DNA of 64,000 nt, taken from assembly GCA_963281255.1 (NCBI GenBank), contig OY725504.1:310001-374000 (forward strand), written 5' to 3'. The notes under the pieces were generated by a model. It saw only the letters and a program-made list of their open reading frames with translations. It was not told where the DNA came from and did not search any database. Position 1 is the stretch's first letter. Every line of letters begins with the position of its first letter. The position numbers and the translations under genes are program-made. Below are positions 3,288-36,392 of the stretch, piece by piece. This DNA comes from Aphrocallistes beatrix. Its lineage: Eukaryota > Porifera > Hexactinellida > Sceptrulophora > Aphrocallistidae.

Positions 3288-4774
3288 TTATTTCCGTATA
3301 TCCTGTCGCTTGGGTTCTTGGGACAGAGATCTTCCTTTGCTGGAATACTTCTCTTCTGAGATCTTGTTGAGGTAGTATAGAGCCATGAGCGAGCAGAGAA
3401 TGCTATAAATAGATATTGTCTATAAATAGAATGTAGTAGACCAATGAAAATAGGTATCTCACTAGAAAGATTTTTTGTCTCAGTCGATTCGTTTTCTTAA
3501 GTTATGTGGATAAATTGAATTCTAATTACCAGATTTGTTTATAAATACAGTCGAACCTGCTATAACGGCCACTCTATATAACGGTCACCTGTCTATAGCG
3601 GTCACCAATGAACAGTCCCGTTCGAAATTCCATAATATTGAACCTGTGTATAGCGGTCACCTGCTCAACGCGGCCAGCGGCCACCCGTTTGTAGTCCTTT
3701 ACTGACCCTAAAACTGTCTATAACGGCCATCACCTTTTTAACCTTTTTATGTGTTTATTACAGTACCTGTTGCGAACGAAAAACAAATTTCATGTAATTA
3801 CTTCAAGTAGTAATGGATTTCTAAAACTTGATATTTATTGCACTACATTGATACCTTTTGGGGATTAAGACAATCACCTGTATATAACGGTCACCCGTGT
3901 ATAACGGCCAATTTTGTCCAGTCCCTTGGGTGGCCGTTATATACAGGTTCTACTGTAATTGTTCATCAATTGAGCATTTACAATAGATAAACAAACAAAC
4001 AAACAAACAAACAAACATTATATTACCTCACTGTCATAGAAACTCTGTGTACTAGCACTGAAGCGAATGCAGCTACTCCGATTGAAAACGCAACTAAACA
4101 AAATACCACAATCAATACGGAACTAAGAGAAGAGTTGGTTCCAGTTTACCTTCATAGACTTGGGATTGGAAATCATCTCCGAGCATCATTCTCTCGATAG
4201 CTCCTATCCCCTATATAGTGCACAGTAGTCTCCTTGTTTTAATTCAGGAAAACGAAAAGTAGCTGGTTGTGAAAATAAACAAAAGGTCACAAATAATAAT
4301 ATATACAGTCGACTCCGCTTAATAGGGTCACATCGGTCAGAAGACATTTTGGCCCGATTAAATGGAGAGCCTTATTAACCGAAAATAATTTGTATTAGCT
4401 TTTGTGTGAGAGTTATTCCGGTCCTACCAAAAGTGGCCCGATTAAGCGGTTGACCCGATTAAACAGTGACCCTATTAAGCGGAGTCGACTGTACATTCTA
4501 TTGAAGGTGTGAAAATAGTTTGTTTGTTTAGGAGTCTTGTTTACAACTCACCGTGAAAACAAACAAGAAGATATGTGAACCAATGAAGCCTGCAAGGATG
4601 GTCATTGGCTGACTGGATGCCAGCTGTCTCGAGAACATTTGCATGGCTGCGAATATGAGGACAGTGAGGAGCACACATAACATCAGCGTTCTTCCGTTGT
4701 TCAGTCCTATTTATAGAACAGAACTAACCAATCAGATTGAGTTGTGTGATGTATATATCCGTCTACTCACCCAT
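3288..4774 (-). CDS. KRTCAP2: KRTCAP2 homologue, oligosaccharyltransferase complex subunit (five exons)
   Basis: Rebuilt by eye. Coding exons on the minus strand are 4774-4771, 4706-4552, 4210-4150, 4093-4027 and 3402-3288. All introns are GT-AG and every phase agrees, giving 133 residues (human about 136). Diagnostic stretches are FAAMQMFSRQLAS, GFIGSHIFLFVF, LGDDFQSQVYE and MALYYLNKIS, which align with human MQMYSRQLAS, FGKGFQAKIFPE and GLYYINKIS. KRTCAP2 is a small multi-pass ER membrane subunit of the STT3A oligosaccharyltransferase; the hydrophobic segments are visible. The first coding exon supplies only ATGG. The introns before exons 2 and 5 end in CTATAAATAG or CTATTTATAG. Intron 2 holds a pogo MITE and intron 4 a second, longer one. 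It is divergent from SFSWAP. Confidence 0.85.
3546..3957 (+). mobile_element. pogo-like MITE with internal GGTCACC repeats
   Basis: Ends are TA CAGTCGAACCTGCTATAA and TATACAGGTTCTACTG TA. The interior repeats the TIR phrase (TATAACGGTCACC, CTATAGCGGTCACC) several times at each end, so the termini are multi-unit. It lies in KRTCAP2 intron 4. A partial copy in reverse orientation lies at 29697-29820. Confidence 0.7.
3989..4018 (+). repeat. (CAAA)n microsatellite
   Basis: About seven AAAC units. Similar AAAC/GTTT tracts recur at 5409-5433, 25457-25470 and 30540-30640. Confidence 0.8.
4304..4493 (+). mobile_element. pogo-like MITE (CAGTCGACTCCGCTTAAT family)
   Basis: Near-perfect terminal inverted repeats CAGTCGACTCCGCTTAATAG and its complement, bounded by TA. 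It is 190 bp, non-coding, and in KRTCAP2 intron 2. It looks the best preserved of this family in the window (others at 50131 and 56436). Confidence 0.75.
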
Positions 4775-4948
4775 TCTGTAACTGAGCAGTTGATACTAAA
4801 AATAGCTAAGCTAAGATGTAAATAATTATTAATTGTCAACCATTAGTCTTAAACTTATGCTAGAAAGTAACTAAATTTATCACTAAATTTTTCTTAAAAT
4901 AGATGATTCGCAAAATTAGTATTTGAACGAGGGATTTTGAGCCAATTT

Positions 4949-5351
4949 CATACTTACCAACCCCTCTTGAAATTTTCCCTGGATTTTGGGAGTGGAATCC
5001 CAGGATGTGATTATATTTTTAGTTTTAATGACTAAATTAGCATGAATTATAGACAGGTTAAATTTCGAATTTCGAGATCCAGGGAATTTCCTGGATTTTA
5101 AATAAAGGGGAATATATGTAATTAAAGATTTTGAAAAGGACAAGTAAACTATTTAAAAAAGGTACATCGTATGATATGTCGAAATTTGTGAGTCCAGGAA
5201 ATTTTCCAGGATCCCTGAAGACTTGCTAAATAATGAGGAACATAAAATTACTCAATAACTTCCCATAAACTATATTGCATGAATGGAAATTATTATGTAT
5301 AGGTTAGTTAAAGCTCAAAATCCCTGGTTCCCTGGAGGGTTGGTAAGTATG
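4949..5351 (+). mobile_element. Non-autonomous TIR element with CATACTTACCAACCC ends
   Basis: The left end CATACTTACCAACCCCTC and right end GAGGGTTGGTAAGTATG are inverted. Internal phrases such as ATTTTCCCTGGAT and CCAGGAAATT repeat in both orientations. It fills most of the 750-bp divergent spacer between KRTCAP2 and SFSWAP, so it may overlap their promoters. Confidence 0.65.
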
Positions 5352-5523
5352 CAGTTTATGAGTCTTATATGAGATATATGGGAATTGGTTTGGTTTGGTA
5401 TTTCTTGTAATAAACAAACAAACAAACAAACAGAGAACATTCACCTTTGTCGTTGTGGAAGGTTTTAATATACTCAAATGTATAACTACGTATTTGCACC
5501 ATTGGAATGTTAGTTCATCAATA

Positions 5524-8500
5524 ATGCAGTCTTCACGTCTTTCTCAACTAACCACTCAATTCCCGGAACTGTCTATCATTGGTTCCAGTTGCACTTTCCA
5601 TCAGGATGAGAGGAAGTACCTCGAAATAGAACAGGGCCTCCACCTCATACCATGGACGGGAAACACCTCACTTCTAGTTGACAGATATGACGCCAGATCA
5701 TTCCTGGACGACCAATCAAAATTCGGTCTGAAATCGAGTTTCCCTTTCAAACCGACGCAAGAAGAAATCGAGTTTGAACAGATGTGTGACAAAGAGAGAT
5801 ATTTGGAACTAAATACGGAACTAAGCGAGGTGGAAATTGGAACTGAAGAAGAGGAGAAGAGGGGATTGGAGAGTTTCGCGCAAATTCCGTACAATTACGA
5901 ACTGTCGCAAGGAACTCGAACTAAGAACGAAGTTGTCGGGACAGAAAATGTGAGTTGAAATTTGAGGATTTGATTGGTTCATTTCTATTGACAGGAGCAA
6001 GATTCTACCTGGATACAGGGACATGCATCTGGAATGTAAGCTCTTAGTTTCAGATTGAAGGTAAGAGTAAGTTATTAAGTAAAAAAGTTATTTTAAGAAT
6101 ACTGCACACAGATAATTCTAAATATATCTTTTTTCTAATTTCATTTCCTCATTTTTTTCTGAATTTTTTCAAAAATTATTTATTCATACGATGTCTAATT
6201 TGTTTATTGATAACTGTTTATCTTTTAGTCCGCTTCCAGATTCGAAAAATATCTATTTTTATTGGGATAATTATAAACTAACACCTCTTAACATCCCTCC
6301 TAACTGTAGAGTGGAGAAACAGTGACCAATGATAACACAGAATCCAATATTTTCACACCTTCACTCGCCCTCAAGATTCCTCCCAACATAGCAACGCCAG
6401 ACACGGAAAAAATGCACGCGATTATAGTGAAGACAGCTTCACACGTCGCTGAGAAAGGAAACCAATTGGAAATAATAATAAAAACAAAACAACAATTCAA
6501 TTCTTCCTTCGATTTCTTGAATTTAGAGGACACTCTCAACCCATATTATAAACACGTGAAAAGTTTGATTCTGAGTGGCGCATTCAAACCACTAAGTGGC
6601 AGCTTGCAAGGTGTGAACGAGAGAGTGGCAGGTGAGAAACTTAGTTAGTTATGCACATTTGTACGGAGAATACCGTTGAGTTCACATTAACCCGAGTACG
6701 AAATTATAAATTCCTTTGGACCACTATGGTATCCATAGTTCCCAGGTTTGAAACACTTTATAATATAAATAGACGCCCAAAGGCGCACAATTAAATACAA
6801 ATATCGACCAATTAAAATCCTTGCAAACTTGTAAAAAGTATAAATCTAAAAACTAATACAACAAATGCGTCTAAGACGTCACAGCACATTCCTAATGTTC
6901 ACTAAGGTAACTATGAGCATAAAATGAAACCTAACTAAGTTGGCTACTGCTTGGTTCCAGTTTAAGTTCCAGTTCTAGAGCTAAGCTCTGTGCCTACGGA
7001 AATTCTTTAGAGACGATTTCGTCATACCTCAGTTCCCTTGACTTCAACAGCTTTGGTTTCGATCTCAGTTCCGATATTCTGGCGGAATACTTAGGATCCA
7101 CTCTCAACTTCTCTTCTAACTCAGAACTGAGAATAGCTATATTCGATGCACCAGCTTGTTCTAATTTGGGACTTGCTGATCCAATTTTAGACTTTCCTGG
7201 TTCCAATTTGGGACTCGCTGATCCAATTTTAGATTTGGCTGTTCCCATATCTATCATTGAGAAAGAAGCTTCTAATTTTATTTCAGGTTTGATACTAAAA
7301 AAAGCTCCCTGTGAGCAGTACCCCACATCCTCCAATCCCATTGGTGGTTCCCCTACGCCACAGAACTCCACTAGGTACGGGTAATTGTGGCACACTGCTT
7401 CACACCACGTCATGAACTCATCACGCGTCCACTCGAACTTGTGGTCGGGGTGTCGGAATCCACTCAGGTTCTTGAACAGGATGTTGAACTCAGAGTTCGG
7501 GGTAGTTATCAAAACGTGTTTCGCTCTCAGTCGACCGAATATGGCAGCAGGTAACTGTGTCAATGTGTCCTCTTCCAAGTGCTCTATCACCTCGATTAGC
7601 GACACAAAATCAACACCTTCAATCCTGGGGTCCCAATCTGTCAGAGAGCCTCGGTATAGTGCTATTTTTAGAGGTGTTGTCCTGTTCTTGTTGTAATTTC
7701 CTTTCTTCGATTTTACCACGTGTTGACTCAATTCTAACATTTCAGTGTCGATGTCAACACCAAATATTTTCTGCAAAAAATCGTAATTTTTTCCTCTCAA
7801 AACGCGGATAAACTTTCCCTCAGCACAACCGAAATCGATTAGTTTTCGAGGTGTCACTTTTTCGATATATTTAGTACACAAGTTGTAGCGCTGTAAATAG
7901 AGTGGAGGGCTGAAAACTATTCCCGTTGTGTGGTCTTCTTTCTGATTAGTTCCACGTTCCTTTGGAGTCACTTCTGTTGCCATGGTAGCGTCTGGAATTA
8001 GACAATTTAGAATTGTATTAAGATCTAAGAAATATTATATTTCAACAGTTAAATAGTGGAGTCGTTTATTAGGAGTTACGTCCCTGGTTCTCAAGAATAC
8101 TTATAATGTAATCTCATTTCCTAACAAAAGTTCTGACACGAATTGCTACAATTGTGTTATAATTATAGACGTATATTCTATAAATAGTATATACCTATAA
8201 CTAAATGGCGCCCAAAGTGGCATGGCCATTGTCTATACTTAGGACTTAGTGCAGTGGTTCCCAACCTGGGATCCATGGACCCCTTAGTGGTCCACAGAAG
8301 ATATCAGGGGGTCGACAGGATTCGAAATTTTGTGCTACGGTTAATAGGAGGGGGGGGTCCACAGAACATAGAAATTTTTTTATAGGGCTCCACAGCCCAA
8401 AAAGGTTGAAAACCGCTGACTTATTGGTTAAAAAGGTGGTTCATCCATCTCCACACTGAACAATACCGGGAGAAATGTGTCGTTATTGACTGCCACCTCC

Positions 8501-11500
8501 CATGACACATCCTAAATGAACTCAGTGGCACGAGTTCTTTAGGAGGCACTGGAGTTTATTTGAAATCTTTCCGACAATTATACTGCATTCCCGTTTCGTT
8601 TTACGAATCCTTCGAATGGACTATCTACCTTGTCTCATCTCTTGGTGTCTATGTCTAATATTCCATTCAAAATATGCAGATTTATTTATTTTCCATTCAA
8701 AATATCAGTTTCTAAGGATCACTAACTAAACTGTATAATAATTCCATCAATGCCGCTATTCGGAGCGAAACAGTCAAGCATACCTTAGGCATAGAGAAAG
8801 TTCCAGAAATAGAAATATATTCAAATTAGGTACACATCAAATCTGACTTCTAAATCGTAGATTTGACACACACACATGATCCGTACTCATGTGTGTGTGT
8901 AGAATCAGATTTCAGATCTGATCCACTGCCCAATAGAATGGTAGCCACACAGACTTAATACAGAACTATGTCGATAAGATATCACTACACACTAACTCCA
9001 GCACATAATACACTATCCTAGTCCTAGACATGACCGACGAAAACTGTACAAACGACCCCAATGAAGTTAGGTCAAAATTCCCACAGCCAATCATTGCAGA
9101 GAATAGTGAGGATACGGAGCCGGAAGATATCAGATTCTCCCCCCCTCTCTACCGACAGCGATACAGCCTGGCGATAGATTTCATCAAAAAGGTTGGACCC
9201 GCTAAAGTGGTGGATTTCGGGTGTGCAGAGTGCAAATTCCTTTGGACCCTTCGTAACCATAGTTACGCGTATGTACGGGAGATTATTGGTGTTGATATTG
9301 ATAAGAATGTTCTAGAGCGACACCTTCAAGTGGCTAAACCTGTCACCAGTGAATATTTAATTAGGCGGGCAACACCTCTAAAAATAGCTCTATACCGAGG
9401 CTCTCTGACAGAGTGGGACCCCAGGATTGAAGGTGTTGATTTTGTGTCGCTAATCGAGGTGATAGAGCACTTGGAAGAGGACACATTGGCGCAGTTACCT
9501 GCTGCCATATTCGGTCGACTGAGAGCGAAACACGTTTTGATAACTACCCCGAACTCTGAGTTCAACATCCTGTTCAAGAACCTGAGTGGATTCCGACACC
9601 CCGACCACAAGTTCGAGTGGACGCGTGATGAGTTCATGACGTGGTGTGAAGCAGTGTGCCACAATTACCCGTACCTAGTGGAGTTCTGTGGCGTAGGGGA
9701 ACCACCAATGGGATTGGAGGATGTGGGGTACTGCTCACAGGGAGCTTTTTTTAGTATCAAACCTGAGATAAAAATAGAAACTTCTTTCTCAATGAAAGAG
9801 AAGGAGAATGGAGATGAAGCAAATGAATCAGAAGACACTGAGAGAGAATCTATATTTAGTAACATTGAAATACCACAGCTGATTATCAATACGGAACCAA
9901 CTAACACCTCTAAAGCGGAACCAACAGAAACAGCTGACACAGAACCAGAACCAAGTTCAGCTTACGAAGTTATAATTAGCACAGATTTTCCAATGGAGGA
10001 TCCATCCATAACTCCCACCCACAAGCTAATTTTAGAAATAGAGTACTATGCACATCAAATAGCGAAGAATGAATGGAGGAAACTGACTGAATTGTCAGAT
10101 GTTCGAGAGGAAGATTTGCATAGACACCCCGTGCATTCTGATTGGGTGAGTTTCGAACCTGGTACAGGGGAGGGACACATAATCGCATTTGTGTCCATTG
10201 AACAGCGACTCATGTCTTATCCACAGATAAGCGCGTTTGGAAATGTGGAGCATGTCTTGAACTCTGTTATCAGCTCACAGAGTGGCAACCTCAATTCGGA
10301 ACTAACACATTATAGAGTGGAACTAATGGAGGAGACAGGGTACAATGCTGACTCGGATGAAAAGGAAGGTGATACAAACTGGAACCAAGATGACCAGGTG
10401 GAATGGAACAATATTTTTCAGGAAAATGTTCCGGACAGAAGTTGTGCGCTTGTACCAGAGGATTGGGACAACGACGATTTGGAGAGTAAAGACTAATAGT
10501 TTTAACTATGTTTGCTAGGAATTGTCTATTAATAGAGTCATATTTTATTAACTTCCCATATCGTTTTAATTAATTCAATTAATAATAAAATTCTAAGATT
10601 ATATCCATTGTTTCTACAATGCATTCCAATGGCCGCAATTTGTCGTCAGTGAGAAAACATTCCAATGGTGGTGGGAGACATAAGGTGTATCATTTTCGTT
10701 ATCCCGATTCTGAAACTGAAACTGAAACTGGAACTGAGAGTTTGGTTGGGTTGAAGAAGGAAAGAAAGCTAAGACAGGAAGCAGAAGCTCAGAGCATTAG
10801 ATTGGCTGGTCTGTTGCATCGAGCTGTCACACCAACTGACACTTCGACACCTCGACAGAGCGACACAAAACCACCTTCACCGCCACCACCACAACAACAA
10901 CAAATGGATGAGCTTTCCTCGAGGGCGAATCAAATCGAAGAGAAGTTGGAACGGATGAAAGTACGTAAAGATTCCAGCCAATTATCTTCTCGCCTCGCTT
11001 CAATCAATCAACAGCTGTTCGAGTTGGAAAGTAGGCCTTCAAGCTCAGGAAATCAGGCGGGAGAGTTGCAGGAACAGCTGGAGCTGATTGAAGAAGCGAC
11101 CAATCGAATCGCTGCTAAAAATAGACATGCACCACCTAGAAGATGGTCTTCTCAAATGAGTCTCGATTCTGCCATGTCTAGCCGACACAATTCGAGTTTC
11201 ACACCTGACCAATCGCATGACAGAGTTTCCACACTGGAAATAGAACTCGACTCAACACGACAAGTTAAAGACGAACTGAAAAATCGGTTGGAACAAATGC
11301 TGGTTTATGCTAGGAGCCTTGAATCGGAACTAAAGAATCATAGTTCCGAATTGAATTTGGTCAGAAATGGGCGAGAGCAATCATTCCGAGAATTGTCGAG
11401 TGAGAGACACAAAGTGTCTGAATTAGCCACAATTTTGGGGCAAGAAAAGGATACGTCACTCCATTTCCAAGAATTGTCTAAAAAATTGCAAATAAAATTT

Positions 11501-14500
11501 AAGAGGTGTCAAACAGAATTGCGAAATTTCGAATTTGAAAATGAACAGCTTTTACAACAAAACTCTAATTTGCGCGCTGAATTCAAGCATGAAATATTCA
11601 GTAAAAATACGGTTGAAGATTTGAGGCGTGAAAATATGCAACTAAAATATGAACTCGAAGATGAAAGGTCAAAATTGAGGTCAGTTCGTGAGATTCAAGA
11701 GAAAATGGGCGCCAGGTATAGGTGTGAAATGGAAGAAATTTCAAACACGAAAGAACGATTGGTTCACGAAAAAAACAATTTTGAAAAACAAAACTTTGAA
11801 TTTACTCAAAAAACGCGAGAAATTGAAATTCTTCGCGAAACAGTGAACACACAACATCAACAAATCGAGCAAATGAAAGAAGACCAAAGTTCTATTTTGA
11901 GAGCGACCGGCAGTGAAGTGGATCTGTTGATGGATACATATGGCATCCGACACCAAATTCCTGAATTCTCAAGTGGCACACTCAGAGGGTTGGAAAATGA
12001 GCCAAGAAAGTGGATTGCAGATTTGTTGGGTAAACTGAAATGGTTGCAATCTGAAATAAAGCGAGCTCAATTCAAGGACAGTATTTAACATATATATTCA
12101 CTTAACACCTATTCTTGAGATATTAAAATAATATATTTACGAAAACAATACTTAATTGTTTGTCATTTCAAGGTGTGAAACAACAACAATCATGTTTCTA
12201 AACAAAACGTGTTAGTAGTACTTATTATTAATTAAATATATTATTAGGTGTGAATATACGACACATCTAACCAATGTATTCCTTGTTTGTGTGTATATAA
12301 ACCAAATTTGTTACTCAAAATAATGTACACAAATTCAGGTTTAGAAGTGTTAATATTTACTAATTGTATAGAATATCCAACTCCACCACCACCACATTCC
12401 GATCCCGCTCCAGGGTATCCAGGGCGTAACCAACCTCAAAATGTAACAGTACCCGACATTCCTCAGGGAATACCTGGTAACCAGAGAGAGCTCACATAAT
12501 AAATTTCCGTTTATTTCTCTCTATTTATACATTCTATTTATAGACCTCACAGCTGAGTCTAATTCTAGTTCGGGCGGGGAAATGGAACTGCACCCGCTGC
12601 TCAGATATAGTTCCAGTTCCGGTTCTAAATTTAAACCGATTCCAGTCAAGGCGAAGCGACGGCAGAAAGCTAAGCTATTTTTAGAACGCATTAAGAAGGA
12701 AACTAGAACTGAATCAGCTGATTTTGCGCGGGAAACGGATAATGACACCGGAAGAGAGGTACTAATTTTAGTTACAAATTTGTACATACAGTAGCTATAA
12801 ATATGTTTCGTTTTTTGGATGATCGAAAAATCCATGATACTATAAATAGAACAGGTGTGAAGTGGCATGGTGGCTGGGACACAATTCTGAGTATGTCTGT
12901 TTGTTTTGATCAGACACGAGAAGTGTCGATTTAATACAAACAAATCTATACACACATTTTGAATAGCAACTCCATAACAGAGAAGTATCTTCGATAGTGT
13001 GATGTAGCTAATATTAGCTACAGACATACTGTACTAAATTTAGAATCGGGACATAAGGGTGCACAAGAAGTGTTTGTAATCCCAGATATGATGTTATAAT
13101 ATTTTGAACTTGGAGTACTGCTAATAGAGAAAACACATTGTACTTGTAGTACTATGTGGTAACTATGTATTATTAATACAATGTTCCATTGTACACTCAA
13201 TATACAACACTACTCTCTCCCTTGAAAACATAATTAGTTAATTATTTGAAAAATGTTCCACTTCCAAAATCTCATTTCTATTAATCTTTTCAAGCTGCCA
13301 GCTGGTGTATATATCACACCTCCTCCACCTGATCTTCAACAGCTGATCGACAAAGTGGCATACCAAGTGGTTTCTAGCACCAGTGAGTCGTTTGAAAGAC
13401 ATTTAAAGGAAGGAGGGAATTCCATCTATGATTTCTTGTATCCAAGCAACCAATACAATGCGTACTATCGAGTACGGAAAGGAATGTTCAAGAAAGATGA
13501 AAACATTCCACAGAAGGTAGTTCTAATTATAGAAACGTACCTCGAATTAGAAAAATTTGATGCACACAATTATATTTTTTTCTCATAAATTCCCAATAAA
13601 ATCGTAGAATGTTGTTTACTAATTATATTTTGAATTTATTTACTAAACAATTGTTTATTTTAGGAAGTATTAGAGCAAGGGAGGAGTGAATTGGTTCCAA
13701 TTTCATTCTCGTTTCAGAAGAAAGTGAACAACAAAGATTTGGAACAGAAAGTCTATCTTGGCGGAGATTCTAGTTCCGGTGAAGAAGAGGAGAAGGTAGG
13801 AGAGGTGTTCCATTCGTACTATAAATAGAATGTTTACGCTCTGTTTACAGATGAACCAACCGAGAACTCATGAATGTGACAACAGAGATCATGGCAATGG
13901 TAGGTGTTTATTGGTATTCATTATTGTATCATAAATTTTACAAAACAAAACATGTAAATGCAATAGATAATTTAAATAACTTCTAGTTACAATTATAATA
14001 ATAAATTAAAACAGGGTTTTTTAAGGGCGATCATGGTGTAAAAATTACACCACGAATTTTGGGAGTTACACCACGATTTGGGTCGGCCGCTGCAGCGTGG
14101 GCAATATTTTGTTAATATTTTTTCGGTGGTTACACCGTGATTAAGCTGAGTTACACCAAGGTCTCAACCTTAAAAAAACCCTGAATTAGAAATTTTTATG
14201 ATCTCTGCCAACTTGCCAACTGTCCCGGGGTTTTTTCACTCTACTATTGAGCTAATTTTCTCAAGTGTCCCGCTTTACATTAAGTTTCTCCATTACATAA
14301 ATCCCACTTTTATTTATTCTATGTATAATAATGTATAATATGTCCCGCGAAATTCAACGCTGCGTCCCGCTTTTATCACGGCTCAAGTTGGCATGTATTC
14401 TCTCCATCTTATCAATACAAAAGCAAAGAAGGCAGTTGATATAGCAATTAACATTTGACTGACTAAACTCAAATTCCACTAAGCACCGTCACTAATGCAA

Positions 14501-25529: not shown

Positions 25530-26783
25530 TTAATTGGAAAATATTTGGAGTTTGAATTCATCTTCAGGTGCTACTACCACGAGTTTGAGATTCATGAGAG
25601 CTATGCCTTCTGGAATCATATATATATCACTATCTTGAAACTGTCCTATCGTGTGGAGGAGTGCTCCATTTGGAGAGAACACTTTGATGCAGTGATCCTC
25701 ACCATCGCAGAAAATAAAATTCTTCTCTTTGTCCAAACAAAAGAACCAGGCTTTATTAACTTGCATTCCTCCACCATGTGTGATGATGGAGCGTAGCTTG
25801 TCTCCATCGTGAGAGAATATGTGCATGCAGGGAGAATCAGTGGAACTGAGGATATAAAATTCTTCTGCAGTTAGCTTGACGTCACGAGGATATCTCATTG
25901 ATTCGTGAGTCATGGAATGTTTGAAGTTTAGTGACTCGTCTACGATTTGAATTCTGTGATTGCCATAATCTGCGATATAGAGATCTCCGTTGTCTGAGAC
26001 AGTGAGTTGTCTAGGATTGTTGAACATTCCATCTGTAGATCCCTTACCCAATAACGCAGCCACGGGATGGATATCTGCTTCTATTTTGAAGTGGAACACT
26101 CCGGGTGCAAATGTGTCTGTCACGTATACGTTATTCCTATGGAATGCTATACCCCATGGGTATCTCATACGTTCATGAGTGAAACTATTCAGGAAATCGC
26201 CTCTCTCTGAAAATATTGAAACTCTAGCGAACCTAGATTCTCCTTCAGCGACATAAATATGATTGGTTGAGTCATCAATAGCGACTCCATTAGGAAACTA
26301 AAGCTGTCCAGGATTCTTTCCTTCCTTTCCTACAGCTACTATTCGTTGCATTTGTTGGTATTGGGGGATGACTGGCACTGTCTCTTCTACAACATCTCCC
26401 AGAGCTAAGATCAGCTGCTCCAGCTCTTCACTCTCTCCCTGGAATTTCAGTCGTGTCTCAGGTTGAGGTAGTCTCAACTCTGTTAGTTTTGTTTCAATAT
26501 CTGCGAGCATTCTTTCCTGCAAATCTCGGAGTTCGTTGTCCTTTATGTCTCGCTCAATATTTGCTTTGGTTGTTAGAAGTTCTTGTTCCTTCTGTGTGCG
26601 GTGTAGTTCTCGTGCGGCCATTTCGAGGCGTCTCTCGTTTGCTTCAGTGAGGACAGTCATTCGTCGGTGGTTCACACATGCGACCACTCTGTCGAAGAAG
26701 TGGTTTATGTGCACCTCAATGGGATCCACGGGTTGTGGTTCGTCGTGATAACGAGCAGCCATTTCCAATATTAGAATGTACAA
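25530..26783 (-). pseudogene. Coiled-coil plus NHL-repeat gene with one in-frame stop
   Basis: The whole 418-codon frame aligns with the intact copies at 40993 and 43798. It has a coiled-coil N terminus (MAARYHDEPQ, then ERRLEMAARE) and an NHL propeller to FKLQIFSN. The only break seen is a TAG at 26298-26300, where the intact copies continue GELSSPHGVAIDE. Before and after it the same frame stays open. The 5' flank keeps the family promoter block (TGCCACTGTAACTATAAGAA, about 26850-26880). A single stop in an otherwise clean frame suggests recent inactivation, a polymorphism, a sequencing error, or two separate products. The homologous start may be the second Met at 26762. Confidence 0.75.
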
Positions 26784-27194
26784 ATAGAGATAGAATATAA
26801 TTGTTCACTAATTTGGTAGATTTGATTTTTAATAGAATACAAAAGTTAGAGTTCTTATAGTTACAGTGGCAGAGATAAGAATGTATTGAGTTTCATTATA
26901 TATTCACATTATGGATAGATTCAGTGTCTACCTATTCTAAAATGGTTCATCACTTTTAATTGTTGCACCATGTACACTGATAATTGCTTAGCTACAGTGC
27001 AACCTCAGTTAAATGAACTAAGACACGCAAATACCTACAATTCCAGAATATTTAAAAATATATTTGAAATTGTGACGTTTTGTTTTCATATCATGATGTT
27101 CGATACAAATCGTGAGATTTGAGTGATCTGTCGTGAGTCAATGATGATATTGTGTGAGTTGACTTTCAGCAAAGTAGATAATCCTAATGAAATT
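26784..27194. other. Upstream region of the NHL copy
   Basis: Holds the promoter block shared with the 41- and 43.8-kb copies (about 26850-26880) and a worn pogo-like end TACAGTGCAACCTCAGTTAA at about 26994. Nothing else recognised. Confidence 0.5.
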
Positions 27195-27413
27195 CATCCA
27201 TGCCAACTTGAGCCATGATGAAAGCGGGACGCAGCGTTAAATTTCGCGGGACATGGCGGGACGCAATAGAAAAGTATTATACATAGAGCCAAAAAAAGCG
27301 GGACATAATGGGGAAATTTCTTGTAAAAGCGGGACACTCCTGAGAAAATTAACTCAATAGAAGAGTGAAAAAAGCGGGACGTCCCGCCAAAAACGGGACA
27401 GTTGGCAAGTATG
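27195..27413 (-). mobile_element. MITE of the CATACTTGCCAACT family
   Basis: Complete copy in reverse orientation, from CATGCCAACTTGAGCCATG to GACAGTTGGCAAGTATG. It carries the family's repeated GCGGGAC words. Confidence 0.7.
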
Positions 27414-28315
27414 GAAATTACAAATCAAAATTACAAATCAAGAGTGGATTAGTGCACGTGCTTTTCGGGATTATGAATAGCGAACTTTTGTCTAACGTAT
27501 ATTTGGTTAATGGATTTTTGTCAGTCAATCAAATTTCTAGTTTAGAGTGATTCTAACTTGTTTATGTGTATTGCCTCGGGTCTATTACATATTAAATAGT
27601 TATATAAAATTCTGCCGTTAGATTAAAACCCAGGAATTGTATTGGTATCCACATTTGTCACATTTTGAGGCAAGGTGTGAAAATATTAATAAGCCTTACA
27701 TTAGGCTAGAGTGATTCTAAATGTCATTGTGCTACCATATAAAGAATACATGGTCTAATCAGAGAGGATCGACATTATACGCTACCTACAAGCAATGCTT
27801 CGTTTAGATTGAACCACAATCTCCCAAATTCCCAATTCATGCACATAGCTCCTCGTAGAGATGGTTCCAGCTGGAAATATCGAAAAGAATAAGACCCAAA
27901 CCTGTGAAGTAGGAATATAACTAAAACCTGGTAAGTAGAATTAAGACCTAAAATGCAACACAGTACTCCCTTTTCTTTTTTTTTAACTGGCACTTTCAGA
28001 CTCAATTGAACACTATTTCAAACCTCAAAATGCCCAGTTCTCTCTCCAAACAATTTCAGGTCTCATTCCTACTTCGAAAATATTTTAGATCCTATTCGTA
28101 CTTCAAAATATTTTAGTTTTATTCCGATTTCCATTAGCGAGGTTCTACCAGAGTAAACCAATGGAATCGCGTAATTGAATGAAGAAGTGTCATATATAAA
28201 TTTAATAGAGTAAAACTCAGATACATGAAAGTGTGAGATTATGCACACATACAAATACATAAAAACACTACAACACTCATCACTGCTCTACTCTACAACT
28301 CTAGCTCTCTCCAAC
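27414..28315. other. Spacer downstream of MEF2
   Basis: No gene seen. An AGGTGTGAA word is at 27673. Around 28020-28130 a diverged short tandem of TTTCAGGTCTCATTC / TTTTAGATCCTATTCG phrases occurs. Confidence 0.45.
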
Positions 28316-31300
28316 TCAAACCAGCTCTTCAGAGTTGCTGAGGAGTGCCTTCTTTCTCGGTAAGCTGTCCACATTCAAATCTTCCAGAGAAGCATGCTCC
28401 ATTGGTCTAAAGGAAAACAACAACAACAATAAACACAAACAAATAAGAGTCGGTCTGCAGAGGTAGGATGGAGTGGAACAGAAACGAACCGTTTATTGCT
28501 GGCATCCGTGTCAGCATAGGCCTCTCCGCTGGAAGGGGGAGAAGGCATGTTAGCCACGTCCTGTAGCTCTCTGTCCGAGCTGCGAGGGACAGAGGGCTGT
28601 GAGTGGAGGAGAGAGGGATTGATGAGGCGAATGGAGCTGATGGGGAACTCAGCTGGCTTGTTCAGGTATTCGGACGGGGAGTAGAAAGCAGCTCCTAGTC
28701 CCGGAGTTATCTGTGGGATGTGCTGGTAGTAGTTCATCTAGACAAGACAGGCGTAAACCATGGATACATGTGCTGAATTCTATTCACCCAAACTCCACTG
28801 AGTTGCATGTTATTGAGGTTTGGAAGGAGAGTTCCTCACCTGTAGGTGTGGTGCATTCATGAATGAGAGAGTGGGGTTGCCTTGTTGGATCTGAGAAGAG
28901 GGAAGCAGAGAATGCGAGCTGCCGTTAGGAGGAACCTGACCGTTCAGTTTGGACTGAAGAGCAGTTCTCGTGGACTCGTTTATCCCCGGAGCGGGACCTT
29001 TCCGCCGTGAACGGATTGGCTAGAAAAACACTCAGTTAGAAACGGGACTAACAACACAGTTTTAGTGCAGATCCTAGTATAGGACATGTCTTATGTCATG
29101 ATCGACCAATGATGTACTTCCTGCGAGATCCTGGAAATTGTATTGGACCAAATTGCAGCAAATTTGAACCATATATTCCTTAACTAGTGGAGATTTGCAC
29201 TTGGATCCAAATTTTACATCTCTTCATGAAAAGTGTCAAATTGTATTAGCTAATTAAAATAGAAACACAATCTCACTCACAGTTGGGTTTGCACTGCTGG
29301 CAGTGTCAGAGAGTGACGTCATGGTGTCCGTGTTCTGTCCTGGACTGAGAATGGAGAGCTGTGGAGGAACACGAGACACAGGAGATATCCCCGTGTCTCC
29401 GTCTGCCTCGCCTAACGCCTCGCTTAGATCCACTCGTCCCAGGAGAGAGTGAGTGATGGGATGAGTGGAGACTTTGTGGTTCACACCGTTCAAGCTTATT
29501 TCAGGAAGTTGAACGAGTTCTGAGTTAGTGAATCCTTCTGCTTCCTGCAGAAAAGAATCAAATATAAACAATGACGTCATAATTTCATGATGAATCGACA
29601 TTTTCGTCTCAGCTCAGAACTTAGTGGAGCCATAACCAAAAGACTCCCAAATGGCAAAAAATCAGCTTTCTGCGCCTGGCAGTTTCTTCAACAATTCGAA
29701 GGTGATGGACGTTATAGACAGGTAGTGGCCGTTATACACAGTTTTAGAGTCAGTAAGGGACTATAAACGGGTGACCGCTGGCTGCGTTGAGCAGGTGACA
29801 GTTATAGCAGGTTCGACTGTATATATATACGTATAGATTAATCGAGTTTTAATATTAAGGATAATAACAGACACAGCGTACTAAATATAGCTACACACTG
29901 CACAGTACCTGATTGGCGAGCATAGCAGGACTATTCTCCTCGTCAAGACTCTGATCGTCTAGTTCGGAGGGAGATAGGGGGACGGGGTCAGGGTCTGTCT
30001 TTATCTGTTTCTGAATGTCAGCTCGAGTTAGCGCGGATGCGTGAGACAACGGAATCAGGTTACCCATTGCATTCCCTTCCCTCTCTTCTGGAGCTATAAA
30101 TAGATATGTCTATAAATAGAACTGATTTTGCTTTCTTACTTAGACATGACATCAGTAACATTACTCAATCTTTTGCGCAATATATAAAACTAAATAGTAT
30201 ACCAGGATTAAAGTAGCTAATTTTAGAAATAATATCACATTGCAAATTCTTCAATTAACATGATGTATTGTTCTAAAAATAGACCTGCAGAGAAGTTGTT
30301 GATCCCTAGTCCGAAAGGCGTATACGCAGCAGAGCTGAAGAAGTCCATTCCGTCGCTAGTGAAGACCATTTCTCTCGGGGTCTGCATGTTAATGTTGGGA
30401 GTGTGCAGGTGGCTGCTGGCCATTATCATGCCTTGACTGACTGCTTTATCACCAGCCAGTGTCCTAGCAACCGTAGTGGTCTATTGAAATGTAAGGAATG
30501 TAAATGGTATTTCTAGTATTTGTATGTATGTTGTCTGCTGTTTGTTTATTTTCTCGATTGTTTGTTTGTTTGTTTTTGTTTTAGTTTGTTTGTTTGTTAG
30601 TTTGTTTGTTTGTTTATTTATTTGTTTGTTTGTTTGTCTTCAGTTTACAACTTACCACAGGGATCCCTTTAGAGTTGGAAACAACAATCTTGAGTGGTTT
30701 GGTGGTCGATGGCACACGGTTCGCTTTAGGGTTGGGTGGAGCCTTTGATGCCATGGGAAGTGTCAAAGTCAGATTACCAGATTCTATCACCTAAACACAG
30801 TAAATGATTGGTCAAAAGAGAGATTAACTGTGGTATATCTTTAGGATGCAATTCATCAAAAAAACAGAGAAATATTGGATTTTAGCACTGTTTAAAGTGA
30901 GGAGAAAAACGAGAAAAAAAGTCTAAATATTGCAGATTCTTCAAATTTTGACGAAATGATTGTAATATGTATTTTTCAAAAATGGAATGAATAAAAAATC
31001 CTGAGGAGAGTATGAATAAACTAAACTATTTATAGCGATTTTTCAAGGATAATATCTTAATGCCCAAATAAGGAAGCATATCTCAACATATAAATACAAA
31101 GGATGCTAAATTTAGAAAAGTGTCTACCTTCAATCGCTCCGACTTCTGAATGTCCCTCTCAGGAGGAGGACTGCTGATGGAGGAGAGGTCGGTAGCTGAT
31201 TGGACAGATCTGGGGCTTGCATCTTCCAGGTGACTAGGAATGGCGACTGGCATTTTCTGAGGTAAAATCTAAAAATATGATTCGTGTCAAAAATAAACTT

Positions 31301-34283
31301 TAAGAAAATCGACTGAATAAGCAAGTTGCAATTTACACTCGTGTGATTCGTCGTAAAATTCGAATTTATTTCCTGTGTAATGACGTCAATAAGAAATACT
31401 CAACAGAAGTCATTCAGATTAATGTTAGTATTCGTTATGTTGCTTTCAACGTTTCTCAATCTTATTGAAAGATTAAATTACGAACATCGATTCAAACCGT
31501 AGAAACGAATACAAGGCAGCAACAAGGTGTGAAGTGGTTCGATTGGGACTAAAATGGTCAGTTGAAACAGTCCCTTTTTTGATCAAACGAAAAAGTACTG
31601 GAATTAGATAGTATTTTCGCCGTTCAGATTAGAGAGGGTTTATATGCTAATTCAGGAGTACAACTCACAGGGTTCTGATACTGCATTCTTATGTCCTGCG
31701 AGTGTATCTTGGTAGGATCTACCAGAGCGTGTTGGTACATGGTTGGATGTAGCATACGAGGGTCTAACTGAGGCTTGTACTGTTGGTCCAGTATCACCTG
31801 TTGATGGTTGAACATTGCACGCACTCCGTCATAACCCTTGATATAAATAGAATGTTGATAAAAATAGAATCTGAATTCTGAAACAATGAACTTGTTAAAA
31901 GATGTAAATTTGCAATCTGACAAGATTTATAAATAGATCTGTGGATATAAATAGAAACTATTCTAATATAAATAGAGAGATTGAACTATAAATTGAATTT
32001 CTATAGAAATATTTAATTCATCAGAATAATTCAATTTCCCAGATATCCAGTATTTACCTCATCGATAAATTATAAGGGAGCCGCACATTTGCGCACAATT
32101 AAATCAATATTTGACAATTCATACAACTGTAAACTACCAATTTAGTAGAAGCATGGCATCGGGGATTTCAAAGCACAAGTGGATGCCATCACCCTACAAT
32201 CTGGAAATTCATAGATTGCCTTAAAACAGAGCAGGTAGCGTTGAGTTAAAACAGATTAAGTTAATGTACGCAACTGTGAATGGTAAAACTGTACGCAAAC
32301 GTGCTATAGACCCAAATTATAATTATCAGTTCAATGCTACGTGTAATACATAGTGGATTTCTACTGGGAGCTATCACGTTACTGGCCTTGTACAGTGATG
32401 TAATACACAAAAGCAGGCAAACTGGAACTATTACTGGAACCAACTCACCATGTCCTGTACTGGAGTTTCCACATCATCATCTGATCCAAGCGCGATAGTA
32501 TGGATTTTCTAAAAATAGATATGGCACAATCTAATTATAGAAGGAAATGCAGCATTCCTGGCTTTCACTATGGCGACTGATAAAACTTTACAGGAAATTA
32601 CCCACGAACAATTCAAAGAAAATGATCTTGCATTTTGAAACAAACTTTGAGCAAACACAACAGAATACAACACCTGTTCTATCAATATGCATACAGTTGC
32701 AATGATTTATGACTTTATTTAAACTATGCAATAAAAATAGTGATACGAAGCTATTTTTAGAATTTTCAGTTCGATCAGTTCAGAGAAATGTTTTCAAATT
32801 CCAAAAGGAGATGGGAGCATAAAACGAATACAGAACCAAATATAGGATTTTCCAAAAGGAAATTGACTCATCATTATTTAATTATTCATGAAAATGAATT
32901 ATGAACTGAAACACAAAATCAATATTTAACATTCTATTGCGCGTCATTTCTCTTCAATCAATAATATTTCAATGTTTGATCAACAGTAATATTTTAAAAC
33001 TTGGAAATAGCAACTCATTTTTAGATATCAAAGATATCTTCACCAATTATTTGCTTTTTAAATGTTTAAAATTATCCTCCAATTCTATAAATAGATCTGA
33101 CGATTCGCAATGTATCCAATAGCAAAGCTCTATTATTAACAAATAAGACTCGAAACGTCAAATTTCCTTACAAAAAACTCCTCAAAACTTGCAAAACTCA
33201 GAGGAACAGCACAATTCTACCACACACGCCACTATACATATTATCTACATGATATTAGCATATGGCATAAGTTCCAATAATAACATGACGTCAACTAAAC
33301 TCAATGAAAGTCAGAAGTTACAAACCTTAGCCATATCCTCATTGGTCAGCGCCTCGTCTGGATGTGGATGTGAGACGTACTTCTGAAGAATAGCATTCAT
33401 GTCCGTACTCGAGTATTGGAATAGTTTGTTATTCTTCGGCATTATTATAACTGAAATTTGACAGTCACAAAGTACACTCAGCTGATATGCTTTTCTGAAC
33501 AGACCCAGTTTCCGTTTCATGAAAGTGATCTGAAAACAAAATGATTGAGATAAGTTATCCGAATTTAGAAATTCCCTGATTATAAAAGTGATTTGGAAGG
33601 CTGTACTTTATAATGGTGCATTCCAATCTATGCAATGTGAAACCCGTTATAATTTTAAGTCACAATGCACTACCATGAAACTATTAATAATCTAAATTTA
33701 ACAGATGCCCAAATAAGGTACTCCGTTGGATTTGCTTGTTCAATAAATTTACTTGAGAATCCAACTATGGGGCATGATAGGAAACAATCTCATACAAATA
33801 AATTTCATCATTTTCACACTTAATATACAAATTTTCCTCACAAATACATGAGAAACGTACCATGGTTACCACCATATCGTAATGGAATGCATGACATTTG
33901 AATCCATAATTTTGTAGTGTCTACTATTATTAGATATGACACTATAATAAGGAAGCCAACTGATTGGCTAGGTTTCATGACTAAAAATATCGATTTGAGA
34001 TTCTCAAACTATGCAAATCCTCGTAGCTATTCATTTCAATGTTGCTGGACATAATACATACAAATATTTATATATAAAGTATCAGTTATTTGAACTCAAA
34101 ATCTCACTAATTATGAGGTAGAACTGTTTAATATCAAAATCAGATGGGATAAGCTAAAAACTAGCAAAATACACACAGAATTTAAGCTCGAAATACAAAA
34201 ATAGAATAGGAGTGCTATTTTGAACTGACCTGTCTATTCCTGTTATCAGGAATTCTCTCAATTGGAATCTTTTTCCGACCCAT
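28316..34283 (-). CDS. MEF2: MEF2 MADS-box transcription factor, twelve coding exons
   Basis: Rebuilt on the minus strand: 34283-34230, 33529-33326, 32508-32449, 31836-31669, 31256-31128, 30790-30656, 30480-30285, 30093-29909, 29544-29281, 29019-28840, 28737-28490, 28406-28316. All introns are GT-AG and all phases agree, giving 637 residues. Exon 1 gives MGRKKIPIERIPDNRNRQ. Exon 2 gives TFMKRKLGLFRKAYQLSVLC, then NNKLFQYSSTDM. The exon 1/2 boundary after RNRQ and the 204-bp exon 2 match vertebrate MEF2. The rest is a Ser/Pro-rich activation region with a basic RSRRKG patch in exon 10. MEF2 binds CTA(A/T)4TAG, the word that is strikingly abundant in this window, including at two of its own 3' splice sites. 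The donor of exon 11 (GTTCGT) is weak, and the last exon is the least certain. Confidence 0.88.
29697..29820 (-). mobile_element. Partial pogo-like MITE in MEF2 intron 8
   Basis: Ends in TATAGCAGGTTCGACTG TA and contains AGGTGACAGTTATAG. It matches one half of the element at 3546-3957; the other end is missing. Confidence 0.55.
30540..30640 (+). repeat. (GTTT)n microsatellite in MEF2 intron 6
   Basis: Several interrupted runs of TTTG/GTTT, close to the exon 6 donor at 30656. On the transcribed strand they are AAAC repeats. Confidence 0.8.
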
Positions 34284-34432
34284 TATAGAACAACAAACGT
34301 AATTGAAATGAAAATAGTAGAAAAACCTAAAATAGGGATTAATATTAATTCGTGAAAAGCCTATTTTGATACTTCGCGCTAAACTGAGTTTAGTTCTGGA
34401 TTTGGTTTGGTTAGCAAATCGCTTCTACTGTG

Positions 34433-34480
34433 ACTGAGAATTTCAGATATTAGCGGGGTAATATCTCTGAAATTCTCAGT
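34433..34480. promoter_or_regulatory. Long hairpin in the MEF2 upstream region
   Basis: Arms ACTGAGAATTTCAGATATTA and TAATATCTCTGAAATTCTC (then AGT) are inverted with a two-base bulge and a GCGGG loop. It lies about 150-200 bp upstream of the MEF2 ATG, so it falls in the promoter or 5' UTR. Function unknown. Confidence 0.5.
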
Positions 34481-34483
34481 GGT

Positions 34484-35114
34484 AGTCAGTGGAAATACGT
34501 ACTGAACTAGAATGGTACATTTCTATGAGAATTTTGGTTGTTTGAGTTTAGAGATAGATTGGAATGGTGAGTGTGAACACTCTCTGGAAACCAACACTTA
34601 AATTTGAAATAAATACTAACACATACATCATGTCGACAATAAACTTATCAATATAAAATAAAAATATCCAATTCTAAATTGAAAATTTCGAGAATTCTTG
34701 ATAATTATGCGAAATTTATTTATAGCGACTTTGTACGAAACCTATACATTAGCAGGTATTAGAATGAAATGCGAGAATATGTGTGCAGATATACAACTAT
34801 AATTGTTAACTAATTATTCTAAATTTACCTTTGAAGGTAGGAGCGAATCTATAACTGTATCTCTCAGTTACTAAAATAGAATTATATAAATATAACTAGA
34901 CCATAGCCTATTTATAGTATAGCCACCATGGCCTGCTTAGGCCTACAAGTGTGCTATTCTATATTTAGCACACTCATTCCTATAAAAGAAAGAAATCGAG
35001 TTTAGAAATACAGATTTATACGTTTCAATTATAGAAAAGCTAGCTAATGATTGGTGGGATTTATATGCTCGGGAAATCACCAAAATTCTGTCCATTCAAC
35101 TTAACTATCTCTAC
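34484..35114. other. Upstream of MEF2, no gene seen
   Basis: AT-rich. Contains a CTATTTATAG word at about 34909. Could hold non-coding 5' exons of MEF2, which I cannot identify from sequence alone. Confidence 0.4.
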
Positions 35115-35190
35115 AAGCGCGTTGCTTGCTTGCGCTGCATGGCTGGCGGACACTTTGTGTTCGCACGAGTCGCCCTCAGGGCGCCTGTGA
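35115..35190 (+). repeat. GC-rich hairpin-cluster repeat, copy 2
   Basis: Same order of elements as at 194-267: AAGCGCGTTGCTTGCTTGC, then GGCGGACACTTTGTGTTCGC, then GTCGCCCTCAGGGCGCC. The last two are near-perfect hairpins. Confidence 0.65.
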
Positions 35191-35234
35191 TGAAATAAGA
35201 ATAATAATAGCTTATGTCAGACATAGTACGTAGA

Positions 35235-35411
35235 TACAGTCAGTCCTCTCTAATTGTCCACTTCTCTAATTGCCCAGGTTCTCTATTTGTCCAATGCCAG
35301 AATGGGAGTACTATGTACACACACTTCGAATTCTCTAATTGTCCAGGGTTCTCAAATTGTCCACTTAGGACCCATTACCTAATGGTGGACAATTAGAGAG
35401 GACTTAGTGTA
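35235..35411 (+). mobile_element. pogo-like MITE (CTCTCTAATTGTCCAC ends)
   Basis: TA CAGTCAGTCCTCTCTAAT to ATTAGAGAGGACTTAGTG TA. Terminal inverted repeats flank a non-coding core that repeats AATTGTCCA in several places. Confidence 0.7.
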
Positions 35412-36392
35412 TTGGATAATTTTGTTCGTTGGGATGCCACCTTCGATGATATTCCATACAAACTTATTGGCTATAGTGATATATTGGATATGGTGATAAT
35501 TTGGCTCAAAATCCCATGCCCCCATACTATCACTATATCCAATATCTACTGTGCAACCTTGTTGTGCTTGGACAGCCCATGTCACCTTTCATTCTCGGAT
35601 ATGGGTACAGTATATACTCGAATAGTGGCCGGGGGGATTCTTCATTTTAGCCCCATTTGTCACCTGAAGAAAAAATGATAATTCAGATTTAATTAAAACC
35701 CACGCTTTGCGAGGTGTTTTGTTGCGTCATTTCCGGTTTAAGCTATTTTGAACGGGGAAGCCATACAAGTTACTATAAATAGAAAAAAACACCAAGTCAG
35801 CCGAGGTAATTAATTAAGAGAATTTTAGAAGGAAATAACCGCACGAATGATTCAACAATAGTAGAAGGGAAGAGTTCAATATTAATCTCTATTAAAGAGG
35901 CAACAAAAGTCTCTAGCACCATCTTTGGGGTCTATTCGAGGTAACACGGTATGACTGAAATCTCTCTTATTTATTCCTTATAAAATCAACGTGTACTAAC
36001 TCACAGTTAATATCTCACAACTAATGGAGTCTTGTACTGTGGGTATCAGCTGTCTTGGTTGCAAAGACTAATGAATGGAATGTTAGCGACTAGCATAGCA
36101 TCTCTTTAATATGAACGTAATTCTACTTGAAAATATAACTCAATGATCAGTGATAACAGTGTCATAATCAATAAGCTATATATCCCCCAAAAAAGGAAAT
36201 GAAGAAGTTATTCGATTAGCTAACTTCTTTTAATTCTTTGATGATTCGAGTGGAGTGGTTGTGTTGGTAAAATAGGAATTGTGGGAATCGCACAATCCTC
36301 ATTAGTTAATGTTATTTACCAAGCCAAAATCCACTACAAGTTGCGGTGTAAGTCGCTACATTTTCGTGAGAAAAGTTTGCTTCATAGGAATA
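35412..36392. other. Intergenic with a hairpin
   Basis: Words GATATATTGGATATGGTGAT and ATCACTATATCCAATATC (about 35478-35546) are inverted. A CTATAAATAG is at about 35775. No gene seen. Confidence 0.45.

What the first reader, a model, noticed from the sequence alone, without database searches (positions are those of the whole stretch)
3403..35784. CTA(A/T)4TAG word forms 3' splice sites in several unrelated introns
The ten-base word CTATAAATAG/CTATTTATAG/CTAAAAATAG occurs about thirty times by eye; at one-third GC I would expect about four. In my exon models it is exactly the intron end at KRTCAP2 introns 1 and 4, SFSWAP intron 3 and MEF2 introns 2 and 7. In KRTCAP2 intron 4, MEF2 intron 7 and SFSWAP intron 3 it is doubled at about 13-18 bp spacing. 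Because it ends in AG on both strands, it could act as an acceptor in either direction. It equals the MEF2 binding site and a good TATA box, so one word may be serving several roles.
Basis: partly seen in the sequence, partly recalled or inferred. Interest (0 to 1): 0.75.

Follow-up and report, generated by a model that had tools for sequence, protein, structure and literature searches.

The report
Palindrome marks one chromosome end
A short mirror-image DNA word that looks like the landing site of the MEF2 protein is concentrated near one end of the chromosomes of this animal and often also serves as the cut point at the end of introns, which hints at an unknown chromosome-end system.

Summary
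CTAWWWWTAG occurs 50 times in the window, 1.95 expected. A small gene finder without an acceptor model ends 20 of 113 introns of the surrounding word-rich region exactly at the word, against 49 of 1405 other AGs in those introns. Three such junctions in one NEDD4-like gene align without a gap to solved homologues.

Acceptor use is the smaller half. Few word ends precede coding sequence (27 of 356), and intergenic words carry the same symmetric flanks, TTCTAWWWWTAGAA. Position-only searches of the 100.5 Mb genome put the word near ONE end of chromosomes: TTCTATAAATAGAAC 28 of 30 and TTCTAAAAATAGAAS 24 of 27 within 1 Mb of ends assigned from other searches on 13 chromosomes (about 20% expected); a one-base near-miss gives 4 of 34, RRM exons 15 of 73. 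The other six chromosomes agree on thinner data.

Best reading: a MEF2-type DNA site kept across a terminal domain of about 0.6-0.8 Mb and reused as a 3' splice site inside genes. What the domain does is not shown; gene regulation and a pairing-centre-like role both remain open.

The parts
3270..35782 (.). Dense stretch: 45 of the window's 50 CTAWWWWTAG words. Part of a larger word-rich region on the same contig (C18 about 226-346, 374-384 and 426-456 kb; the window is C18:310001-374000)
3403..3429 (-). Word doublet (3403-3412, 3420-3429, spacing 17) at the end of KRTCAP2 intron 4; phase favours 3420-3429 as acceptor
4707..4716 (-). Word upstream of a KRTCAP2 exon with Pfam Keratin_assoc match; intron 1 acceptor or TATA box
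12521..12543 (+). SFSWAP intron 3 end: word 12534-12543 with imperfect copy CTATTTATAC 12521-12530 (spacing 13)
   Evidence: acceptor use is inferred
30094..30119 (-). Word doublet (spacing 16) at the end of MEF2 intron 7; followed by predicted coding exon APEEREGNAMG...
32509..32540 (-). Word doublet (spacing 22) at the end of MEF2 intron 2
23095..23120 (.). Word doublet identical over 28 bp to the MEF2 intron 7 doublet; the sequence next to it resembles the following MEF2 exon, so it looks like a copied piece of MEF2; a further copy at C18:547700
   Evidence: likeness judged by eye
28315..34283 (-). MEF2 gene, one of two loci with MADS (PF00319) matches in the genome; exon 1 about 34283-34230, exon 2 from about 33529
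3291..4710 (-). KRTCAP2 exons
5362..13585 (+). Exons assigned to SFSWAP (DRY_EERY 5362-5955, SURP 6310-6645, SURP 13250-13585); other long frames lie between, and that the second SURP belongs to the same gene is assumed

Best explanation
CTAWWWWTAG is the core of a 14-bp palindromic DNA site, TTCTAWWWWTAGAA, of the kind bound by MEF2-class MADS dimers. This genome keeps the site in a domain of about 0.6-0.8 Mb near one end of its chromosomes (clear on 13 of 19, thinner on six) and near background elsewhere; on C18, the only domain sampled at length, it runs at about 1.3 per kb, mostly in non-coding DNA. Shown: the excess, the one-end placement, the exactness of the core, and the use as acceptors. 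Inferred: that a MADS protein (most simply MEF2) binds it, and that binding is what keeps it. Because each half reads TAG, a site lying at the end of an intron in its T-rich orientation makes a good 3' splice site, and about one in six modelled introns of the word-rich region ends in one. What the domain does is least certain. I lean slightly to a chromosome-scale role (a cis platform at one end, working like the nematode pairing centres) over plain regional gene regulation, because the domain runs across unrelated genes and appears at one end only.
For: Window 50 against 1.95; genome 11838 against 4740 reversed control. First 1.86 Mb of C1: 100 words, 54/Mb, close to the control's 47/Mb, so the excess sits elsewhere. 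Doublet searches (lists capped at 100 places, of 166 and 126 matches) placed doublets near one end of most contigs (lengths). Single-site searches with other patterns: TTCTATAAATAGAAC 40 sites, 30 on the 13 chromosomes with an assigned end, 28 within 1 Mb of it, 2 near the other end, 6.0 expected; TTCTAAAAATAGAAS 39 sites, 24 of 27, none near the other end, 5.4 expected. Controls: near-miss TTTTATAAATAGAA 48 sites, 4 of 34, 6.8 expected; RRM exons 15 of 73, 14.6 expected, and 25 of 73 near the opposite end; homeodomain exons 0 of 9. Sharpness: the exact class is 205 in 160 kb of word-rich sequence against 17 in 104 kb, single-base half variants at most 2.1-fold, CArG boxes not enriched. Intergenic words have the same TT/AA flanks as intronic ones. 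The MEF2 MADS/MEF2 domain is intact, best match a MEF2D chain, 1.4e-31.
Against: No binding, expression, Hi-C or meiotic data. The words favour intron 3' ends beyond what matched TAG context gives (acceptor OR 3.3, last 50 nt OR 3.0), which a pure DNA-site model does not predict. Other words are enriched in the same region (ACAAACAA 5.8x, GGTGTGAA 5.3x, CAGCTGA 3.7x), so the domain may differ from the rest in several ways. Some sites lie off the rule (C16:3.21 Mb, C18:3.53 Mb, C8:2.27 Mb, C4:2.39 Mb, C10:3.74 Mb). C1, C3 and C7 have several interior sites, and C17 and C19 rest on two sites each. L028 (C16:127-137 kb), inside a domain by position, has only 1 word in 10 kb, and C18:384-426 kb is sparse.
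Confidence: 0.55

Rival explanations
1. Regional gene regulation: the terminal domains hold genes co-regulated by MEF2, and the words are ordinary enhancer and promoter sites of those genes.
For: Density is higher in introns (2.43/kb) and within 500 bp upstream of predicted starts (1.95/kb) than in other intergenic DNA (1.02/kb). Other TF-like words (GGTGTGAA, CAGCTGA) are enriched in the same stretch. A myosin heavy chain gene and both MADS loci lie in domains. On C19, not among the 13 assigned chromosomes, two homeodomain exons (3.22 and 3.33 Mb) lie near the two words at that end.
Against: The genes are unrelated and several look like housekeeping genes (KRTCAP2, SFSWAP, MRP-S35, RRP15). 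On the 13 assigned chromosomes homeodomain exons are 0 of 9 within 1 Mb of the assigned end. A tissue programme does not by itself predict one end of many chromosomes.
Confidence: 0.3
2. RNA-level splice element: CUAWWWWUAG is a 3' splice-site signal, and the other copies are acceptors of unrecognised exons or splicing regulators.
For: 20 of 113 introns end in it; matched TAG tests p=0.005 and 0.0018; T-rich orientation 16:1 at acceptors; gap-free homologous junctions.
Against: Only 27 of 356 word ends have clearly coding sequence after them; intergenic words share the full symmetric flanks; 33 words lie in predicted coding exons (predictions imperfect); a spliceosome acts on all chromosomes, yet modelled introns outside the word-rich region use it 1 of 41 times (partly circular).
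Confidence: 0.12
3. By-product of a regional process such as biased conversion, mutation bias or a recombination-rich chromosome end, without a function of the word.
For: Simple-repeat words are also denser in the region; the domain is defined by position.
Against: A one-base change loses the placement and most of the excess (48 sites against 32 for its reversed control; 4 of 34 at the assigned end). Of the twelve commonest xyzWWWW palindrome classes shown, only AGTWWWWACT has a higher ratio (21 against 1), and 16 of its 21 copies form one tandem array at C18:280.8-281.7 kb. A bias that makes one exact frame with a free centre is hard to imagine.
Confidence: 0.12
4. A transposon or introner family carries the word.
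For: One dispersed family carries CTAAAAATAG...CTAAATTTAG, and a few doublets are local copies.
Against: That family is listed mainly in the interior of C2 and C4 (capped list). In the word-rich region 65 of 205 words lie in locally repeated sequence, which makes up 37% of it; over the 264 kb 76 of 235, with 39% repeated. Flank preference is weak beyond two bases.
Confidence: 0.04

Closest known systems
Caenorhabditis elegans meiotic pairing centres (ZIM/HIM-8 motif clusters)
   Same: A short DNA motif enriched near one end of chromosomes (nematode facts from passages of PMC3820632).
   Different: There the four proteins each serve one or two chromosomes and are C2H2 zinc-finger proteins; here one MADS-type palindrome is shared by the chromosomes, and no meiotic role has been tested. 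Nothing suggests that the host is a nematode, but the species is not identified.
MEF2 binding site CTA(A/T)4TAG (YTAWWWWTAR)
   Same: Exact core, and the window holds a MEF2 gene with an intact DNA-binding domain. The site consensus is recalled, not taken from a call.
   Different: Known (recalled) as scattered gene-regulatory sites; concentration at one chromosome end and use as splice acceptor did not appear in the rows listed by two paper searches.
Spliceosomal 3' splice site
   Same: AG end, T-rich upstream, exon follows.
   Different: Normally a loose pyrimidine tract; here a fixed 10-base palindrome, common only in the word-rich region among the introns modelled.

Membership tests
MEF2 binding site | Core CTAWWWWTAG, tolerant mainly at the outer base, not CArG (recalled) | tested here: met
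   exact class about 8-fold; outer-base variants ATA 2.1x and TTA 1.8x; CCW6GG 28 against 44 (both strands counted). The 8-fold is partly circular because the region was chosen by word count
MEF2 binding site | A MEF2 protein able to bind exists in the genome | tested here: met
   MADS/MEF2 domain, two exons joined by eye, aligns without gaps to a solved MEF2D chain
MEF2 binding site | Occupied by MEF2 in cells | not testable with these tools
   needs ChIP or CUT&RUN
Nematode-type pairing centre | Short motif clustered near one end of each chromosome | tested here: met
   clear on 13 chromosomes, thinner on the other six
Nematode-type pairing centre | Different motifs and proteins for different chromosomes | tested here: not met
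   the same core words occur at the assigned ends of most chromosomes; finer differences not examined
Nematode-type pairing centre | Bound by ZIM/HIM-8 zinc-finger proteins | not tested
   not searched
Nematode-type pairing centre | Needed for homologue pairing and synapsis | not testable with these tools
   needs cytology
Spliceosomal 3' splice site | Intron end followed by an in-frame exon | tested here: met
   20 of 113 introns; three gap-free junctions against NEDD4
Introner or transposon end | Homology between copies extends beyond the word | tested here: not met
   flank preference weak beyond two bases; words not tied to locally repeated sequence; one dispersed family is an exception
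TATA box | Fixed distance of about 30 bp to the start of transcription | tested here: inconclusive
   no peak among 50-bp bins upstream of 49 predicted starts, but the starts are rough and are translation starts

The most novel reading that the evidence does not exclude
An animal outside the nematodes marks one end of each of its chromosomes with thousands of MADS-type palindromes that recruit a protein for a chromosome-scale task such as homologue pairing or anchoring, and this chromosomal code has spread into genes so far that the spliceosome now uses it as the 3' splice site of about a sixth of the introns there.
Probability: 0.2. Interest if true: 0.92.

Novelty: new variant of a known kind. 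Interest (0 to 1): 0.74.

Why it matters
How chromosomes find their partners, or how one end is told from the other, is known in sequence terms in very few organisms (recalled). A single exact palindrome that labels one end of the chromosomes would give a directly testable handle in another animal. It would also be a case of one DNA sequence under two constraints at once, a protein-binding palindrome and a splice acceptor, which bears on how intron ends evolve.

Tried and rejected
Composition artefact: rejected by shuffles and by the reversed and near-miss controls.

Gene density as cause of the end bias: rejected; RRM exons are not enriched near the assigned ends (15 of 73, 14.6 expected) and are commoner near the opposite ends (25 of 73; one search scored 150 of 179 candidates). 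ORF cover is alike in word-rich and other samples (0.355 and 0.333).

Developmental-regulator domains: homeodomain exons 0 of 9 near the assigned ends; but on C19, not among the 13, two lie near the word-bearing end.

T-box-like word as a second end marker: its doublets (309+304 matches; only the first 100 places, on C1 and C2, were listed) are mostly a dispersed repeat, so they are no support.

AGTWWWWACT, a palindrome with a higher dense/other ratio (21 against 1), proved to be mostly one tandem array.

First gene-finder version chained unrelated genes and was replaced by one with an intron-length cost.

Identifying the species: paper searches by assembly size found nothing; one search on glass sponges gave a single paper, of which I saw passages only and which did not help. 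A sponge is a guess from chromosome number, few homeoboxes and gene types, set beside a listing of sponge genomes.

Cautions: the word-rich region of C18 was chosen after seeing word counts, so contrasts of the word itself between it and other sequence are circular in part. The other set (104 kb) holds L028, which by position lies in the C16 domain, and 350-370 kb of C18. The 13 assigned ends came from capped lists, some from two doublets only (C13, C14, C15), and for C18 from the window; the tests use other patterns but can share single sites with them. A repeat family was set aside by eye. Sites on the six unassigned chromosomes were left out of the 30, 27, 34, 73 and 9.
Full report
Setting. 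The window is C18:310001-374000 of a 100.5 Mb genome in 28 contigs. I saw the lengths of C1-C20; 19 of them are 2.8-12.5 Mb and together hold nearly the whole genome. A COX1 frame with eleven in-frame TGA codons lies on C28.

The observation. CTAWWWWTAG occurs 50 times in the window, 1.95 expected; the three named words with their complements occur 30 times. The count stays high to both sides: 235 in the 264 kb C18:210001-474000, against 0 to 2 per 10 kb in five samples elsewhere; a further piece on C16, fetched because it holds a doublet, has 8 in 3 kb. Genome-wide there are 11838, against 4740 for the pattern read backwards.

Acceptor use. As a first test without gene models, word ends with non-coding sequence before them were asked whether the next 60 bases look clearly coding: 27 of 356 do, against 105 of 3665 other TAGs, 26 of 766 TAGs preceded by WWWW, and 128 of 2586 CAGs. 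A small gene finder, given GT and AG but no acceptor preferences, learned the donor AG|GTRAGT by itself. In the word-rich region 20 of its 113 better introns end exactly at the word, 1 of 41 outside; other AGs within the same introns are words in 49 of 1405 cases. Restricted to TAGs with at least three T in the seven bases before, the figures are 19 of 60 acceptors and 35 of 226 decoys, p=0.005; with at least four T the difference is weak (16 of 43 and 23 of 105, p=0.045), and with five it is not significant (6 of 22 and 4 of 32). Against other xyzWWWWTAG strings in the same introns, the word is over-represented at the acceptor (20 words and 19 others there, 31 and 96 more than 50 nt away; OR 3.3) and in the 50 bases before it (24 and 25; OR 3.0). 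Some of the latter are second members of doublets, where the choice of acceptor is uncertain. Homology confirms junctions outside the window: a NEDD4-like HECT protein joined over three word acceptors aligns to NEDD4 chains without a gap across all three; a cadherin piece with two word acceptors aligns to CELSR1 without a gap at either; a myosin tail segment with two word acceptors matches Pfam with 214 residues on 214 positions, alignment not shown.

Not mainly a splice signal. Most word ends fail the coding test. Density per kilobase in the word-rich region is 0.58 in predicted exons, 2.43 in introns, 1.95 within 500 bp upstream of predicted starts and 1.02 in other intergenic DNA. Intergenic and intronic words share the same symmetric flanks: T at -1 in 53% and 60%, T at -2 in 49% and 57%, with 33% as background. 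The exact core is what counts: 205 in 160 kb of word-rich region and 17 in 104 kb of other sequence, while single-base half variants differ at most 2.1-fold and centre and spacer variants 0.9- to 1.6-fold. The word-rich region was delimited by eye from the word counts, so this contrast is partly circular; the variants and the genome-wide searches are not. One other palindrome class, AGTWWWWACT, has a higher ratio (21 against 1), but 16 of its 21 copies form one tandem array; 65 of the 205 words lie in locally repeated sequence, which makes up 37% of the region, so the word is not tied to repeats.

One end of the chromosomes. Two doublet searches, whose lists stop at 100 of 166 and 100 of 126 matches, gather near one end of most contigs: left on C2, C4, C12, C14, C16, right on C6, C8, C9, C10, C11, C13, C15; C18 (left) was taken from the window (with lengths). 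The second search also hit a dispersed repeat, mostly in the interior of C2, which I set aside by eye. With these 13 ends fixed, single-site searches gave: TTCTATAAATAGAAC 40 sites, 30 on the 13 chromosomes, 28 within 1 Mb of the fixed end, 6.0 expected, 25 of them within 0.6 Mb; TTCTAAAAATAGAAS 39 sites, 27 on the 13, 24 within 1 Mb, 5.4 expected. The remaining six chromosomes lean the same way on fewer sites (C1 right, C3 left, C7 left, C17 left, C19 right, C20 left); C17 and C19 rest on two sites each, and C1, C3 and C7 have interior sites too. Changing one base of the core, TTTTATAAATAGAA, gave 48 sites (reversed control 32), 4 of 34 near the fixed ends, and few near any end (8 of 48). RRM exons (15 of 73 near the fixed ends, 25 of 73 near the opposite ones) and homeodomain exons (0 of 9) do not follow the word; on C19, outside the 13, two homeodomain exons do lie near the word-bearing end.

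What it is. The sequence is a MEF2-type site in core and length (recalled consensus); a MEF2 gene with an intact DNA-binding domain sits inside the C18 domain, and the only other PF00319 locus found (two exon pieces, one with a stop inside; whether SRF or other was not tested) lies 0.44 Mb from the assigned end of C10. That a MEF2 dimer binds the domain words is an inference. The acceptor use follows naturally from a palindrome whose halves end in TAG, when it lies T-rich side up at an intron end (16 T-rich, 1 A-rich, 3 even). Why intron ends should be favoured beyond matched context is not explained by this.

What the domain does. A terminal domain at one end, crossing unrelated genes, works in outline like the pairing centres of C. 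elegans, which lie near one end and recruit their proteins through short motifs (passages of PMC3820632; PMC13387615 passages, speak of clusters of such motifs). It is not filed as a pairing centre: the motif does not differ between chromosomes as far as seen, and neither proteins nor meiosis were tested. Regional transcription under MEF2 is about as likely. Paper searches on MEF2 motifs with sponges and on MEF2 with splice acceptors brought nothing relevant in the 10 and 8 rows listed, of 110 and 119 papers; only those listings were seen, so absence from print is not shown.

Noticed in passing
genome-wide, e.g. C1:913260-913301: Most of the 100 listed places (of 613 matches) of AGGTGTGAAN{0,30}AGGTGTGAA are one dispersed unit, AGGTGTGAAAAATTGTTTTCCATTTTTTTTGCAG followed by AGGTGTGAA; it looks like a minimal intron (GTGTGA...TTTTTGCAG) between direct repeats, possibly an introner.
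   Followed up: no
23095-23120, and C18:547700 (L003): A piece that resembles the end of MEF2 intron 7 with the start of the next exon sits near the NHL-repeat gene family and occurs again beside another copy of it.
   Followed up: partly
6997-8034 (-) and 9009-10493 (+): Two long methyltransferase frames (HEN1-like by recall), near-identical over part of their length, in opposite orientation between the two SURP exons assigned to SFSWAP.
   Followed up: no
window, many places: Other strongly over-represented words: ATGACGTCAT, ACGTATACGT, AAAGCGGGAC, CATTCC (palindromes are counted twice there).
   Followed up: no
C6, C11, C16, C18: 5 of 9 homeodomain exons on the 13 assigned chromosomes lie within 0.6 Mb of the end opposite to the word-rich one, and 23 of 73 RRM exons do too.
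   Followed up: partly
C18:280774-281686 (L011-L012): Tandem array of ACTAAGTAAA/ACTTAGTTTT units, source of an apparent AGTWWWWACT excess.
   Followed up: partly
left ends of most of C2-C20: Contig starts share a subtelomere-like repeat (CACTGTACCCCCCCACAGGG..., AAAATGCTCACTTTCACTTTGC...); none of the 20 first 200 bases has TTAGGG or CCCTAA.
   Followed up: no
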